This document shows positions 9,611 through 34,213 of a stretch of 64,000 bases of DNA, one piece after another. The position numbers were made by a program, and so were the translations under genes. Numbering within the stretch: position 1 is the stretch's first letter; the number at the start of each line of letters is the position of its first letter. The stretch covers positions 3,410,001 through 3,474,000 of the forward strand of contig NZ_CP037952.1 in the NCBI RefSeq assembly GCF_004358345.1. Direction: 5' to 3'. This DNA is from Parashewanella spongiae (GTDB lineage Bacteria > Pseudomonadota > Gammaproteobacteria > Enterobacterales > Shewanellaceae). A model generated the notes under the pieces. The model was not told the origin of the DNA. It saw only the letters and a list, made by a program, of their open reading frames with translations, and made no database searches.

Positions 9611-10648
9611 TTAATTTATTCGCTTCATACCTTCATCTATCGACACTAAAGCTTTATAGCCAAAATCACCTTTTGCCGCGCTAATATCATAATAATGACT
9701 GCAAGATAGTTGCTTAGCGACAAAGCGTGTCATCAAAGGCTCTTGTTGCTTGTTCAGCAGCTTATAAGCCACTTCTAACATTCCGCCTACAGCATAAGCA
9801 ACCACGGTAGGCACTCGCGAGGTCACTTTGGGAAGATGTTCAGTCGCGAGAATTTTATTCAGCATTTCAGCCATTGTGATTGGCTCATCATTACTTAAAA
9901 AGTAGGCCTTACCTTGAGACTTAGGTTCATTAAGAGTTAAATCTAATGCCGCTAATAAATGTCCGTAAGCCGCATTATCTACATAAATGGTATCTACGAG
10001 TTTATCGGTATGACCAACCAACTTTAACCTTCCGCTTTTTGCTCTTTCAAGTACTCGTGGAATGAGGTGCGGATCGTTTGGCCCCCAAATAAGGTGTGGA
10101 CGAAGTGCTACTGTTTTGAGCGATTCTGAATTTGATTCTAAAATATATTGTTCAGCTACCGCTTTAGAGTGCCCATAATGATTCATGAATTTCGTCGCAT
10201 AAGGCGCTGATTCATCAATACCACTTTCATCAATACCAGCAAAAGTCACACTGGGCGTGCTGGTGTAAATTAGATACTTAATTTCATGCTGCTGACATCC
10301 TGCTACGATATTTTCTGTCCCATTTACATTTGGTTCAAAATAACTGGCTTTAGAGCCCCACACCCCAGCTTTAGAGGCTACATGAAAAACCATATCACAA
10401 TTTTTCATTGCAGAAATAACAGCGCTTTTATTCGCTAGATCACCTTGGATCATGGTGACACCAAGCTGCTCTAATTCAGGATACAAACTTCGAGCAAAGC
10501 CCGTCACTTTTATTCCTACAGCAAGTAAACGTCGGCAAATCACCTGCCCTAAAAAACCACCAGCCCCCGTCACAAAAGCGTGATTAATATTATCGGCAAG
10601 TTCGTTGAGAACAGCCTGCTCTTCTACTTTAAATTCAGTTATCTTCAT
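9611..10648 (-). CDS. oleD: OleD, 2-alkyl-3-ketoacid reductase
   Basis: A 345-residue extended short-chain dehydrogenase. It carries the dinucleotide-binding motif GAGGFLGQ near residue 30 and the catalytic YGHSK near residue 158. In the known Ole pathway, OleD reduces the 2-alkyl-3-ketoalkanoate made by OleA to the 2-alkyl-3-hydroxy acid with NADPH. I chose the ATG that overlaps the oleC stop (TAATG), because the upstream TTG-type start would run deep into oleC. It is the last gene of oleABCD and is translationally coupled to oleC. No clear terminator was found after it. Confidence 0.93.
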   Translation of the reverse strand: MKITEFKVEEQAVLNELADNINHAFVTGAGGFLGQVICRRLLAVGIKVTGFARSLYPELEQLGVTMIQGDLANKSAVISAMKNCDMVFHVASKAGVWGSKASYFEPNVNGTENIVAGCQQHEIKYLIYTSTPSVTFAGIDESGIDESAPYATKFMNHYGHSKAVAEQYILESNSESLKTVALRPHLIWGPNDPHLIPRVLERAKSGRLKLVGHTDKLVDTIYVDNAAYGHLLAALDLTLNEPKSQGKAYFLSNDEPITMAEMLNKILATEHLPKVTSRVPTVVAYAVGGMLEVAYKLLNKQQEPLMTRFVAKQLSCSHYYDISAAKGDFGYKALVSIDEGMKRIN

Positions 10649-12360
10649 TAACCTATTTTCTTTTGTGCCCAAACAGACAATTTCTCACGAAAAATTTTAG
10701 CATTGTGCCTTACATCCATTGGAAAATCAGGATGGATCAGAAAGTCAGTAATTCCGGAGGTTGTTTCAAACTTTTCAGCTAAAGTTATGAGCTCTGAATA
10801 CAGAACACTAGCATGGCTGCATGCCAGTGATTGTTCTAATTCAATGCACACCAAAGGCGTTATAGTGTTATTTATTTTAACTGATACCAATGCTGAACGC
10901 CTAACACTCGGGTGAGTATTAAAAATACGCTCACAAGGTATCGAATAATATCGCTTTATTACCGAGTCAACTCGATGTGCTTTTCGGCCGCACATCCAAA
11001 GCTTACCGTCATCATCAAAATATCCAAGATCGCCCATTCGATGACGCATCGCCTTTGTCGTGGGATCAAATACCTTCGAGTGTAAAGTTGCATTTTCTCT
11101 GCGATAATAACTTTGGTTAACCATCTGACCACTTACCACAATTTCACCAATTTGATTGGCAGGTAGAGCTAAACCATCACTCCAAGTTTTAATGTTATCT
11201 TCAGTAATTGAGATAATAGATACCGTAACGCCCGAAACTGGCCGCCCAACGCAAATGCCTGCGCCGGAGTCCGTAAGTGAGCTAGTCATAATTAATTCAT
11301 CACTAGCAAACATCGAAACAGGTAACGACTCTGTTGCGCCGTATGAATTTATAACCCTAGCCTCAGTATTAAGCATTTGACTAAACCGCTTTATAACTTC
11401 AATGGAAACTGGTGCTCCAGCTGAAATTACTCGCTTTACTGACGGTAGCTTTTGCTGCCTTGCCTCACCCGCTTGGCCTAATTTATCCATTAGCGCGGGG
11501 TTAGCAAAAACATTGCTACATTGATATTGATTTATTGCCGCAAACAAATGCGTTGGATTAGCCGTTATTGGTTTGCTTGCATCCATATCAGGCACAATAG
11601 ATGCCATTCCTAACGCGGGGCCAAATAATGAAAACAGTGGGAAAGTTGCTAAATCACGCTCACCAGATTCAATCTTATAATCGTTTTTTAAAGCATCAAT
11701 TTGAGCTTCGAACATTCTATGGCTGTAAACTACACCTTTAGGAGTGCCTGTACTTCCACTGGTAAACAAAATCGAGCACATGTCATCTGCACGCAGCCAG
11801 TTAATTGGAAACTCTGGCTTAGTATCTTCAAAAGGTGAGTAACACTCTAAAAGGCTGGAAAGGTTTACTGCCCCTGTAAGCAATGACTTAGCGGTTCTGA
11901 ACGATGGAGCTTCAATTGGGGAGTCCACATTAACGTACAATTTAATGCTCTTTTTCCCCCAACCCAATAAACGACGAGCAGCATGTGCTTTAGTGATGCC
12001 AATAAATGCATCAGGCTGCGCCTCTGCGAAACATTGTTTAAGGTTTTTTAACCCCATACCGGGATCGACAATAATTGGGATGATGCCAGCTTTGAATAAT
12101 GCAAAAGTGAGAGTGAAAAACTCAATGCTTGGTGTGACCATCAATACAGATTTCATACCTGCTTTAATTCCGTATTCGGTCAAAGCATAAGCGATTTTGT
12201 TGCTCTTGGTTTCGAGTTCAGCAAAGTTAAGCTCTTGGTACTGATACGAACCTTTAATGTATTTTTGAACCGCTACTGCTAAATCAAAAGGCTGCACAGT
12301 GGCAGCCTTTTTTAAATGGCGACATAAATTAGCATCATAAATATCAGCAGAATTATCCAC
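10648..12360 (-). CDS. oleC: OleC, beta-lactone synthetase (AMP-dependent)
   Basis: A 570-residue ANL-superfamily enzyme. The adenylate-binding loop '[16 protein letters not shown]' lies near residue 197 and the 'SYGATES' motif near 340. The '[19 protein letters not shown]' hinge lies near 440. OleC adenylates the 2-alkyl-3-hydroxy acid and closes it to a beta-lactone. The start is GTG, preceded by AAAGAGA. The last codon overlaps the start of oleD by one base. The upstream gap to oleB, originally about 30 bp, is now enlarged by MITE-1 copy 2, which may affect co-transcription. Confidence 0.93.
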
Positions 12361-12416
12361 AAAAAATCTCTTTTTTAATCAATAAGCGTTTAGTCTTTTG
12401 CATCTTGAGCAATAAA

Positions 12417-12649
12417 CCTAAAAACATCAGTTGAACGCTGAGTATAGTGACTAACTGTTTAAGCAATACGATGATTTTATCATCATGGGTTTCACCCAAT
12501 GAGTGAAGGGCTCTACGCTCACAAGCTTGCTAAAATGACTGCTATCTGTGTTATAACTTTTGCAAGTAGAATAACTACTTGCTGCAAGCTACGCCTTACT
12601 ATCAGCCATTTTTCTACGCTTGAGAACGCAGTCAACTGATGGTTCTAGG
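12417..12649 (+). mobile_element. MITE-1 copy 2, inserted at the end of oleB
   Basis: The element is 233 bp with perfect 5-bp target duplications ATAAA on both sides. Its right terminus lies inside the oleB reading frame. Reading the minus strand, the element contributes the last 18 or so codons and the stop of oleB. On its far side, the original continuation (encoding about IAQDAKD then TAA) is still readable directly after the duplication. It separates oleB from oleC. Confidence 0.95.
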
Positions 12650-13536
12650 ATAAAGCTTTTAACTAAACTTATGACTTCATCACTCGCATCTTCAAGAATA
12701 TAATGCCCACAATCAGCAAACTCATTAAATTGAGCTTGTGGTAAACGTTGCTTCCATTGTTCTAAAAAGTATTTATCGAACACAAAGTCTTTTAACCCCC
12801 AACACACTAATGCTGGTGTTTCAGAAAACTGAGATAAACTCGATGCAATATCAGAGACTAACTGATAATTCCTGTCTTCTGGTGATAACGGGATATCCTG
12901 CACAAAGCGCAGTGTAGAAATTCGATTCTTCCATGAGTTAAATGGAGCAACAAAAGCTTCTCTCACTTCTTTGCTCATTGGCTTACGCTTAACGCCGACA
13001 TACGATGCAATGGAAGAAAACGCATTGAACCCACGAACCAATAAAGTCCCCAGTAATGTATTTCGACAAATCCACAATGGTATTGGCAACATTTTATCCT
13101 GAGGCAAATGAAAAGCAGCCGTATTTAGAATTACTAAGCGCTTTATTCTTTCTGGGTGGCGTGCCGCATAACCCATTCCTATCATTCCTCCCCAATCATG
13201 AACAACAAGGGTAATGTTTTCTTTTATATCTAAATGATCAAGTAAGGCATCTAAGTCATTAATCCGATTTTCAAGCGTATAGTCATAATCCATATCATCT
13301 GGTTTATCTGACAATCCACAGCCAATATGATCTGGCACGATACATTGATGATCTGATTGCAAAGCTTCGACCAAATTACGATAGTAATAACACCAACTCG
13401 GATTACCATGAACCATAACCACAGGTTCACCCTGCCCTTGATTCAAATAATGCTGCTTTAAGCCATTACGTTCAAAATATTGCCCTTTAAATGGCAGTAA
13501 CGCTTCCATATTATTCCCTACCATTCGTGTTACCAT
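12589..13536 (-). CDS. oleB: OleB, beta-lactone decarboxylase, with repeat-derived C-terminus
   Basis: An alpha/beta hydrolase of the haloalkane-dehalogenase-like class, about 315 residues. The nucleophile Asp lies in 'VVHDWGGMIGM', the oxyanion motif is 'HGNPSWCYYYRN', and the base is the His of 'DCGHYILED'. OleB converts the beta-lactone from OleC to a cis-olefin and CO2. The chosen start overlaps the oleA stop (ATGGTAA). A second ATG 27 bp downstream has a better AGGGA site and may be the real one. The final residues after 'LVKSFI' (LEPSVDCVLKRRKMADSKA) come from MITE-1 copy 2, replacing a native ending of about AQDAKD. Catalytic residues are untouched, so activity is plausible. Confidence 0.9.
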   Translation of the reverse strand: MVTRMVGNNMEALLPFKGQYFERNGLKQHYLNQGQGEPVVMVHGNPSWCYYYRNLVEALQSDHQCIVPDHIGCGLSDKPDDMDYDYTLENRINDLDALLDHLDIKENITLVVHDWGGMIGMGYAARHPERIKRLVILNTAAFHLPQDKMLPIPLWICRNTLLGTLLVRGFNAFSSIASYVGVKRKPMSKEVREAFVAPFNSWKNRISTLRFVQDIPLSPEDRNYQLVSDIASSLSQFSETPALVCWGLKDFVFDKYFLEQWKQRLPQAQFNEFADCGHYILEDASDEVISLVKSFILEPSVDCVLKRRKMADSKA

Positions 13537-14579
13537 TTCAGGCCAAGCATCATACAATTAAGACCACTTCCAATACCAAGAAAACTCACTTGATCACCTT
13601 TCTTTAAAAAGCCTTGATCGTGAGCAATAGCCGCTGTTACAGGCAAGGATACTGTTCCCATGTTGCCAAGCTTTTGGTATGTCGGAAACTCTTTTTGTGT
13701 ATCGATATTTAAAGCATTCAATACTTGTTTACGATTAGATGAACCTACTTGGTGGCAAATTACCTTATCTACTTGCTCAACCAACCAATCTCGTTGAGCA
13801 AGAAAATGATCCCAAGTATGCTTAGCGAGTTCAACGCCTTCTTTTAATAACGCAACCGCGTCAGTACGCATAAACTCACGATACAAATGCTGTCCAGCTT
13901 CTTGCAAGCCCCACTGACATAACTCGTGATGCTCAGGAGCCGACAAGTGAGAAGCGCCGAGTAACTGGTGCTGGCGATCATTATGTAAAGGTAATGTTCC
14001 ATCTGTAAGAATAACTGCAATTGCACCTGACCCACCTGTGAGTGTGGCAAGCGACTGAGCAAAATTTTGCATAGTTTGCTCGGTCAACATGTGGTTAATT
14101 GTTATGTCCACGATGTCTCGTGCTGATTCGCAAGAAACCACCATGCCAGCTTTAATTTGTCCAAGCTCAATTCTATTAGCAATATCAAGAATACCTGACA
14201 TCACACCCAAGCAGGCATTGCTGATATCGTAAATTGCGGTGTCTTTTGAAACACCTAATTCAGCAGCAATACGGCAAGCTGTAGCAGGTTCGTGTTGATC
14301 TCGGCAAACGCCCGTATAAACCACAGCACCTAATTGCTCGATATTAATGCCTGTTTCGTTAATCGATTTTTTAGCTGCTGCGATAGCACCGTCAGATAAC
14401 TTATGACCTTTAGGCCACCAGCGACGCTCATTAATCCCCGTTAACGCTGCTAACTGCCCCATCGGAATACGGAATTTTTGATATAAGGGAGCCAACCTAG
14501 ACTCTAATTCGCTACTCGAAACAACTACTGGAGCAAGTTCGTAAGCCAGGCTATTAATAAAGACCCGAGAATATTTCAT
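13530..14579 (-). CDS. oleA: OleA, acyl-CoA head-to-head condensing thiolase
   Basis: A thiolase-superfamily (FabH-like) enzyme of about 349 residues. Catalytic residues match OleA: Cys in 'DISNACLGVMSG' (about residue 123), His in 'VICHQVGSSN' (about 276), Asn in 'LGNMGTVSLP' (about 306), and the OleA-type Glu in 'CRDQHEPATA' (about 97). OleA joins two fatty acyl-CoAs to a 2-alkyl-3-ketoacid, the first step of long-chain olefin synthesis. In cold marine Alteromonadales the product is typically a polyunsaturated C31 hydrocarbon. I chose the ATG of MKYSRVF rather than the TTG three codons earlier. It is the first gene of the operon, with oleB overlapping its stop. Confidence 0.95.
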   Translation of the reverse strand: MKYSRVFINSLAYELAPVVVSSSELESRLAPLYQKFRIPMGQLAALTGINERRWWPKGHKLSDGAIAAAKKSINETGINIEQLGAVVYTGVCRDQHEPATACRIAAELGVSKDTAIYDISNACLGVMSGILDIANRIELGQIKAGMVVSCESARDIVDITINHMLTEQTMQNFAQSLATLTGGSGAIAVILTDGTLPLHNDRQHQLLGASHLSAPEHHELCQWGLQEAGQHLYREFMRTDAVALLKEGVELAKHTWDHFLAQRDWLVEQVDKVICHQVGSSNRKQVLNALNIDTQKEFPTYQKLGNMGTVSLPVTAAIAHDQGFLKKGDQVSFLGIGSGLNCMMLGLKW

Positions 14580-15227
14580 GAAACTCAATTGATTTATAAA
14601 AAACTAATCCGCCATTTGACCAAGAATTCAGAGGATATTCAATAAAAAACCGCCCTTATGACACAATAAGTGACCACTTCAGCTGAAAAAAATCATATGA
14701 AACTGAATAGAGTTTTACATTTTATTAATTATATTCAAAAAGTTATAAGTAATCACAATTGAATACTCTTGTTACAAAGGAAATTCAGTTTTTTTGTGCC
14801 GATATCAACATATTTCTTGATGTGATTTCTGATGGAAATCACCACAAGCATGAAGAGCAAAAGCGTGTTGCTTCGAATTAAAGGCAACATCACTGACATT
14901 AAAAGCATCGACACAAATGAAGTCTTGATGAACCTTATGTTTCACTGCCAATCATGTACCTTCATCACAAAGTGCTTTCTGCCATTCTAAGTTAGTAACT
15001 TTCCTTCGGCTTTGCTTTGAAATTAACCTTCCTAAATGGCCTTTACCTGAACACCATTCAAATTTGCCACAAGATTTTCGACTGCATTAATAAACTATTT
15101 ATTTTTAAAAACTCTAACTCAAACAACATCTAACCCTTATAAAATCACAATACAAAAATTTTCATCACAAAACAGAACAAATAAGTTACACTTCAGCCAA
15201 ATAATGCTTAGATTTACAGAGAAAAGA
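14580..15227. other. Intergenic region upstream of oleA
   Basis: About 650 bp between divergent oleA and the DUF1289 gene. It must hold the ole promoter, but I recognise no operator. A 51-codon frame from base 14834 with many basic residues has no ribosome site or recognisable similarity. Otherwise the stretch is AT-rich with no repeat of the window's families. Confidence 0.4.
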
Positions 15228-33350: not shown

Positions 33351-33883
33351 ATACCAATTACAGTAAATCAACAACCCCGCCGCAAGCAGCGGGGTATAAT
33401 TTTACAGTATCATCACTCCAGCGAAGGCTGGAGTCTAATGCCTTTGCTCTTTTCTAGAAAAGTCACTGGATACCAGCCTTCGCCGGTATGATAACAAAAG
33501 TATCTCATTGGTTACTTCGCCCCCAAGGGGCGGGGAATTAAACCCACAGAGATTAAATGCTCAACTCAGAGCTATGTATGTGCTCAAAGCGCAATCGAAA
33601 TTGATGATGACATAGTTGTTACCGACATACACTGTCGTTATTACATTGCTACGTCAAGACAGTTTTGAGAAGTAATTTGAGCACACACAAGCTCCCGAAG
33701 GGCAAGGCTAAAGGGTTCCATTGCTGCGTTACAAGCACTTAAATTATCCCGACAAAAGCACGAAGTACGTTGAACGCCAGCTTTGCTATGGCAGTCGTAG
33801 GGAATATAGTACTTCGAGCTTGTGCCTTGCACTGAAATCCTTTAGCTCTTGCTGAGTGAGAGATTAATTACTGTAATTGGTAT
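33351..33883 (-). mobile_element. MITE-2 copy with nested hairpin repeats (533 bp)
   Basis: A complete MITE-2 with both termini. Its left terminus is split after 'ataccaattacagtaa' by an insert of about 187 bp that contains 'ccccgccgc-aagc-agcggggt', a BIME-like pair and 'cgcccccaaggggcgggg'. It is oriented opposite to the 26.6 and 59.3 kb copies. It occupies the space between pdsO and pdsR. Confidence 0.85.
33367..33553. repeat. Nested BIME-like repeat inside MITE-2
   Basis: Paired hairpins 'actccagcgaaggctggagt' and 'ataccagccttcgccggtat', as near 19.2 kb, plus two GC-rich hairpins at the ends. The insertion interrupts one MITE-2 terminus, giving a relative age: MITE-2 first, then this unit. 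Confidence 0.7.
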
Positions 33884-33899
33884 AAATCGGTTGGGAGCG

Positions 33900-34075
33900 T
33901 TCATATACGCAGAAAAAATTACTGATAGCAAGGCATGAATAGCAGCAAGTAGTGGTTACCGACATACAAAACTGTCGTTACTTCGTTTCTACTTGCAAAA
34001 TTTATAACGCAGCTAGCGGTGATTTTGGCAAGTATATGAATGCTCAGCACTCACCTGTTGGGTGAATTAGGGTTG
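33900..34075. repeat. Diverged MITE-1 relative with an insert in its central hairpin
   Basis: The order of motifs follows MITE-1 read from its right end ('agcaagtagt...ctacttgcaaaa', 'ataacgcag', 'ggcaagta', 'tgggtgaat'). The central hairpin loop is filled with 'taccgacatacaaaactgtc' and a further 12 bp shared with MITE-2. Termini are not recognisable. Confidence 0.55.
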
Positions 34076-34213
34076 CTTAATTTTTTATTTAACTTCAATA
34101 AATTAAAGTTAAATTGTGCATTCAACCGATTTATTTAGGTTTAAGCTTCAATAAAACGCGGTTTTCTGTATAGTCAACAATACGTTAAGCAGTTAATTTA
34201 TGAATCAATTTGT

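What the first reader, a model, noticed from the sequence alone, without database searches (positions are those of the whole stretch)
12395..12660. A 233-bp repeat has rewritten the C-terminus and stop codon of oleB, and the ancestral end is still readable
Seen directly: MITE-1 copy 2 carries perfect ATAAA duplications. On the minus strand oleB runs into the element and ends on a stop inside it, adding about LEPSVDCVLKRRKMADSKA after 'VKSFI'. On the far side, directly after the duplication, the frame continues as AQDAKD then TAA. The insertion also widened the oleB-oleC gap from about 30 to over 200 bp. OleB works with OleC and OleD in a complex in known systems, so a new basic tail could matter.
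Basis: partly seen in the sequence, partly recalled or inferred. Interest (0 to 1): 0.75.

Follow-up and report, generated by a model that had tools for sequence, protein, structure and literature searches.

The report
Mobile repeat gave oleB new ending
A 233-bp non-coding mobile repeat jumped into the last codons of the hydrocarbon-pathway gene oleB in a Parashewanella-like marine bacterium and replaced the final 6 amino acids with 19 new ones; the old ending is still readable next door, but that end of the protein varies freely among relatives, so the change is probably harmless.

Summary
A 233-bp MITE (12417-12649) with perfect 5-bp ATAAA duplications lies in the last codons of oleB (minus strand). 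OleB now ends VKSFI-LEPSVDCVLKRRKMADSKA* inside the element. Joining the flanks restores VKSFI-AQDAKD*, and relatives of the same genus end FMAQHD* with matching DNA. None of 106 relatives has the new tail or this element at the site. The oleB-oleC gap grew from 29 to 228 bp.

The functional inference is weak. OleB C-termini after the last helix vary from 1 to 35 residues in relatives, the hydrolase core and catalytic motifs are intact, and the tail is only +2. It is also not what the MITE family normally encodes: a 1-base deletion in an A-run turned ...RRKNG* into ...RRKMADSKA*. An effect on the mRNA (lost close spacing to oleC, very stable hairpin, z -6.7) is likelier.

Beyond the finding: TIR matches suggest some 200 related copies in this genome. 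The right end of this MITE is the home of an endonuclease-less group II intron: 64 of 66 intron 5' ends directly follow a MITE end, about 89% on the lagging-strand template. The oleB copy is empty.

The parts
12417..12649 (+). 233-bp MITE-1 copy (TIR CCTAAAAACATCAGTTGA ... TCAACTGATGGTTCTAGG)
12412..12416 (.). left target-site duplication ATAAA
12650..12654 (.). right target-site duplication ATAAA
12589..12591 (-). present oleB stop codon TAG, inside the MITE
12592..12648 (-). MITE-encoded C-terminal tail LEPSVDCVLKRRKMADSKA (19 aa)
12390..12410 (-). relic of the pre-insertion oleB end: AQDAKD + TAA
12589..13509 (-). oleB from the ATG homologous to relatives (306 aa; the longer TTG-start ORF runs to 13557)
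10648..12360 (-). oleC (AMP-binding), GTG start with AAGAGA upstream left intact by the insertion
9611..10672 (-). oleD (3-beta-HSD/epimerase family)
13530..14588 (-). oleA (thiolase / ACP_syn_III family)

Best explanation
A non-autonomous DNA transposon (MITE) inserted at an AT-rich 5-bp target at the very end of oleB, duplicating ATAAA. Reading into its right terminal repeat replaced AQDAKD* with a MITE-encoded tail, and a later or inherited 1-base deletion in an A-run of this copy gave the present 19-aa form. OleB keeps its whole catalytic fold, because only a segment that is already hypervariable in the family was changed; it is most probably still functional. The likelier physiological effect is on the mRNA: 228 bp, most of it inside a stable hairpin, now separate the oleB stop from the intact oleC start, which may loosen coupling or invite RNase III cleavage. 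Shown: insertion, duplications, both endings, intact core. Inferred: neutrality of the tail and any mRNA effect.
For: Perfect TSD and TIRs; multicopy family, 30 of 53 sampled full copies with perfect 5-bp TSDs of AT-rich WTNAW type. The joined flanks give a 293-aa OleB whose DNA end aligns with same-genus genomes lacking the insertion (TTTATTGCTCA against TTTATGGCTCA). No MITE at oleB-oleC in 106 relatives; tails after the last helix are 1-35 aa with net charge -8 to +3. Catalytic motifs VVHDWGG and DCGHY are conserved and the hydrolase domain ends before the tail. Structure model: confident core around the active site, tail pLDDT about 50. Transcript-strand fold -83.8 kcal/mol, z -6.7, 0 of 200 shuffles as stable. 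No terminator-like site on the oleB strand within the element.
Against: No second strain of the species was available, so the insertion could not be seen polymorphic. No transposase partner was identified. The closest relatives by OleB identity (G003, G004) end FMKTTEPSAASESEAA*, so the genus itself varies and the ancestral end is supported by only part of it. No expression or enzyme data.
Confidence: 0.85

Rival explanations
1. The new basic tail was recruited and matters, for example by changing how OleB docks with OleC/OleD or the membrane.
For: Tail net charge +2 is exceeded by 1 of 106 relatives; the copy is 3.8% diverged from the family consensus yet the reading frame persists; OleB and OleC are fused in some bacteria, so the OleB C-terminus can lie next to OleC (PMC7064751).
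Against: Segment is hypervariable across relatives; tail predicted with low confidence; one of only two changes in the tail-coding part is a frameshift, which does not suggest conservation; two other sampled genes end inside MITE copies with different short tails.
Confidence: 0.08
2. The insertion damages the pathway: oleC/oleD are under-expressed or OleB is misfolded, a step toward losing olefin synthesis.
For: Gap 29 to 228 bp, strong hairpin; MITEs commonly inactivate or reprocess genes (PMC10969869).
Against: oleA, oleB, oleC and oleD frames are all open with expected domains; oleC start and the bases just upstream are untouched; about a third of relatives have more than 100 nt to the oleC N-terminal motif.
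Confidence: 0.15
3. The exact 19-aa tail is a sequencing or assembly artefact of the A-run; the true tail is LEPSVDCVLKRRKNG-like.
For: 49 of 53 sampled copies carry the extra A (3 lack it, 1 has G) at this homopolymer column.
Against: The copy has eight other differences from consensus, so it is genuinely diverged; the assembly is one contig of 5.47 Mb.
Confidence: 0.12

Closest known systems
Rickettsia palindromic elements (RPE) in genes (PMC10969869)
   Same: small repeats placed inside reading frames so that part of the repeat is translated
   Different: RPEs give in-frame fusions within genes; this MITE closes every reading frame soon after entry and so can only replace C-termini
ERIC elements at 3' ends of Yersinia genes (PMC10969869)
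   Same: repeat at a gene 3' end, potential effect on mRNA stability
   Different: different sequence family; no expression evidence here
Correia elements of Neisseria (PMC10969869)
   Same: MITE forming a hairpin across its TIRs that could be an RNase III substrate
   Different: no promoter or RNase III site demonstrated here; different TIR and target
RmInt1/RmInt2 group II introns homing into ISRm2011-2 and the ISRm17 inverted repeats (PMC5894124)
   Same: endonuclease-less intron living in a repeated mobile element, lagging-strand-template bias
   Different: here the host is a MITE family and about 66 copies are present

Membership tests
MITE (miniature inverted-repeat transposable element) | short, terminal inverted repeats | tested here: met
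   233 bp, about 18-bp TIRs
MITE (miniature inverted-repeat transposable element) | target-site duplication | tested here: met
   perfect ATAAA; 30 of 53 sampled full copies with perfect 5-bp TSD
MITE (miniature inverted-repeat transposable element) | high copy number, no transposase inside | tested here: met
   467 TIR ends genome-wide; no long ORF in the element
MITE (miniature inverted-repeat transposable element) | shares TIRs with an autonomous partner | tested here: inconclusive
   none found in a 23% sample; the one transposase-bearing candidate is nested IS elements in another MITE
IS1380-derived MITE | IS1380 transposase in the genome | tested here: not met
   no match over the NF033539 cut-off in the own genome; TIR resemblance to ISEcp1 was from memory only
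OleB beta-lactone decarboxylase (haloalkane-dehalogenase-like) | alpha/beta hydrolase fold with Asp nucleophile and catalytic His | tested here: met
   PF00561, VVHDWGG and DCGHY conserved, haloalkane dehalogenases as best PDB matches
OleB beta-lactone decarboxylase (haloalkane-dehalogenase-like) | oleABCD gene neighbourhood | tested here: met
OleB beta-lactone decarboxylase (haloalkane-dehalogenase-like) | decarboxylates beta-lactones | not testable with these tools
   needs biochemistry
Group II intron (the element at MITE right ends) | catalytic RNA domains and RT/maturase | tested here: met
   RF00029, RF02003; TIGR04416, RVT_1, GIIM
Group II intron (the element at MITE right ends) | splicing and retrohoming activity | not testable with these tools
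   inferred from nearly identical copies at one type of site

The most novel reading that the evidence does not exclude
The MITE family that re-punctuates gene ends here is at the same time the dedicated homing platform of a single endonuclease-less group II intron. Each new MITE insertion, such as the one in oleB, therefore creates a new intron site whose filling depends on its strand relative to the replication fork. The oleB copy is empty, as expected from its disfavoured orientation.
Probability: 0.75. Interest if true: 0.5.

Novelty: new member of a known kind. Interest (0 to 1): 0.35.

Why it matters
It is a clean, readable before-and-after example of a mobile repeat rewriting a protein C-terminus and an operon spacing without destroying the gene. 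It also leads to a MITE-intron partnership whose strand bias can be counted from one genome.

Tried and rejected
IS1380 parentage of the MITE, suggested by TIR and TSD, was not supported by a transposase. Candidate autonomous element L145:4456-7470 turned out to be an ISAs1-family element carrying an IS4-family element, inside a related MITE-2 copy. An outward promoter or terminator in the MITE was not found above chance on the oleB strand. Rfam found nothing in the window. The idea that this MITE routinely donates the same tail was rejected: in 53 sampled copies only 5 of 106 sides are entered by an ORF with at least 100 codons outside, and only 2 in the long frame. Whole-genome download was not available, so the genome was sampled in 60 stretches of 20 kb. 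The paper searches did not turn up a report of a group II intron homing to a MITE, but the library is partial.

Full report
What was checked. The window is G000:C1:3410001-3474000 of a 5.47-Mb single-contig genome. The nearest named OleB loci come from Shewanella sp. OPT22 and Parashewanella hymeniacidonis, so I treat the genome as Parashewanella-like; its own name was not shown.

The observation. Every structural claim holds: a 233-bp element at 12417-12649 with ATAAA on both sides, an oleB stop inside it, the tail LEPSVDCVLKRRKMADSKA, the relic AQDAKD-TAA beyond the left duplication, and an oleB-oleC gap that goes from 29 to 228 bp. In the joined-flank sequence (one duplication and the element left out) OleB is 293 aa, ending VKSFIAQDAKD.

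Relatives. Among 106 relatives (26, 80; some genomes may be present twice) none has the MITE tail and none has the element within the region tested. Two other genomes of the same genus end FMAQHD*, and their DNA aligns with the joined-flank sequence across the insertion point. G003 and G004, the closest by identity (81%), end FMKTTEPSAASESEAA* and FMKTTEPSAANESEAA*. After the last helix tails range from 1 to 35 residues and from charge -8 to +3. The MITE tail, 19 aa and +2, is long and basic but inside that range. The distance from the oleB stop to the oleC N-terminal motif exceeds 100 nt in about a third of relatives. Here it is about 258 nt, longer than all but one value, and that one (359) may be a mis-detected motif.

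The element. In a 1.264-Mb sample (60 stretches of 20 kb plus the window) there are 53 full copies, 30 with perfect 5-bp duplications of the type WTNAW. The oleB copy differs from the consensus at nine positions. One is a deletion in an A-run (3 of 53 copies lack that base). The consensus frame would end VLKRRKNG*; this copy ends VLKRRKMADSKA*. So the family normally gives a 15-residue tail in this frame, and the present form is an additional mutation or, less likely, a sequencing error. In the consensus all six entry frames meet a stop within 0 to 15 codons, so the element acts as a stop module. Five of 106 element sides are entered by an ORF of at least 100 codons outside: oleB, a TrmH-like gene, an MsrA/MsrB-like gene, a truncated reverse-transcriptase gene, and a short ORF (the names other than oleB rest on my reading of the sequences). 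The TrmH-like gene is conserved in the four other genus genomes up to residue 227; the two whose ends were read have a different end.

Function. Pfam domains, catalytic motifs and the structure model all leave the core intact; the tail is modelled with low confidence. The alignment used for the model had few tail homologues, so the model does not test the tail. The transcript strand of the element folds at -83.8 kcal/mol against -51.7 for shuffles. This makes an mRNA effect plausible; MITE hairpins are RNase III substrates in Neisseria (PMC10969869), but nothing here tests it.

The intron. In 13 of the 53 sampled copies a group II intron of about 2010 bp starts exactly at the MITE right end. 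In 6 of the 9 cases read to the far end, the second copy of the duplication follows it perfectly. Full-length copies are about 98-99.6% identical. Rfam and protein models confirm it; no endonuclease domain was matched. Genome-wide there are 66 intron 5' ends, and 64 sit on a MITE end, three of them on a MITE-2-type end. GC skew places the origin near position 0 and the terminus near 2.75 Mb. With that boundary 59 of 66 introns (89%) have their sense strand as the lagging-strand template (Fisher p about 6e-11). In the sample, with the tandem array reduced to one copy, 11 of 20 MITEs in that orientation are filled and 2 of 30 in the other (p about 2e-4; copies embedded in a shared larger repeat are not fully independent). 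No match to the intron 5' region was found in the four other genus genomes. RmInt1 and RmInt2 are precedents for both the host element and the bias (PMC5894124). The oleB copy is in the disfavoured orientation and empty.

Verdict. The suggestion that the tail matters is not supported. The event is a new example of a known kind.

Noticed in passing
L129:1844-3853 and about 66 places in G000: Endonuclease-less group II intron inserted exactly at the right end of this MITE; 64 of 66 intron 5' ends directly follow a MITE end, about 89% on the lagging-strand template.
   Followed up: partly
L173:7966-8912 (G000:C1:4612964-4613916); also G000:C1:4630638-4631115: Head-to-tail arrays of 4 and 2 MITE copies; in the 4-copy array neighbouring copies share a TTAAA duplication.
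   Followed up: partly
window 33882-34139 and elsewhere: A related MITE-2 family (TIR CCTAAATAAATCGGTTG, 232/263 bp, same 5-bp TSD type) sharing interior sequence with MITE-1.
   Followed up: partly
L145:4456-7470: Nested insertion: an IS4-family element inside an ISAs1-family element inside a MITE-2 copy.
   Followed up: yes
L130, L140, L146, L167, L171: The same flanks ACGCCTTGAA / TTGAACAGAT around several MITE copies, suggesting a MITE carried inside a larger multicopy repeat.
   Followed up: no
L125:17145-17378 and L159:3018-3234: A TrmH-like and an MsrA/MsrB-like gene also end inside MITE copies, with short tails ending NIS.
   Followed up: partly
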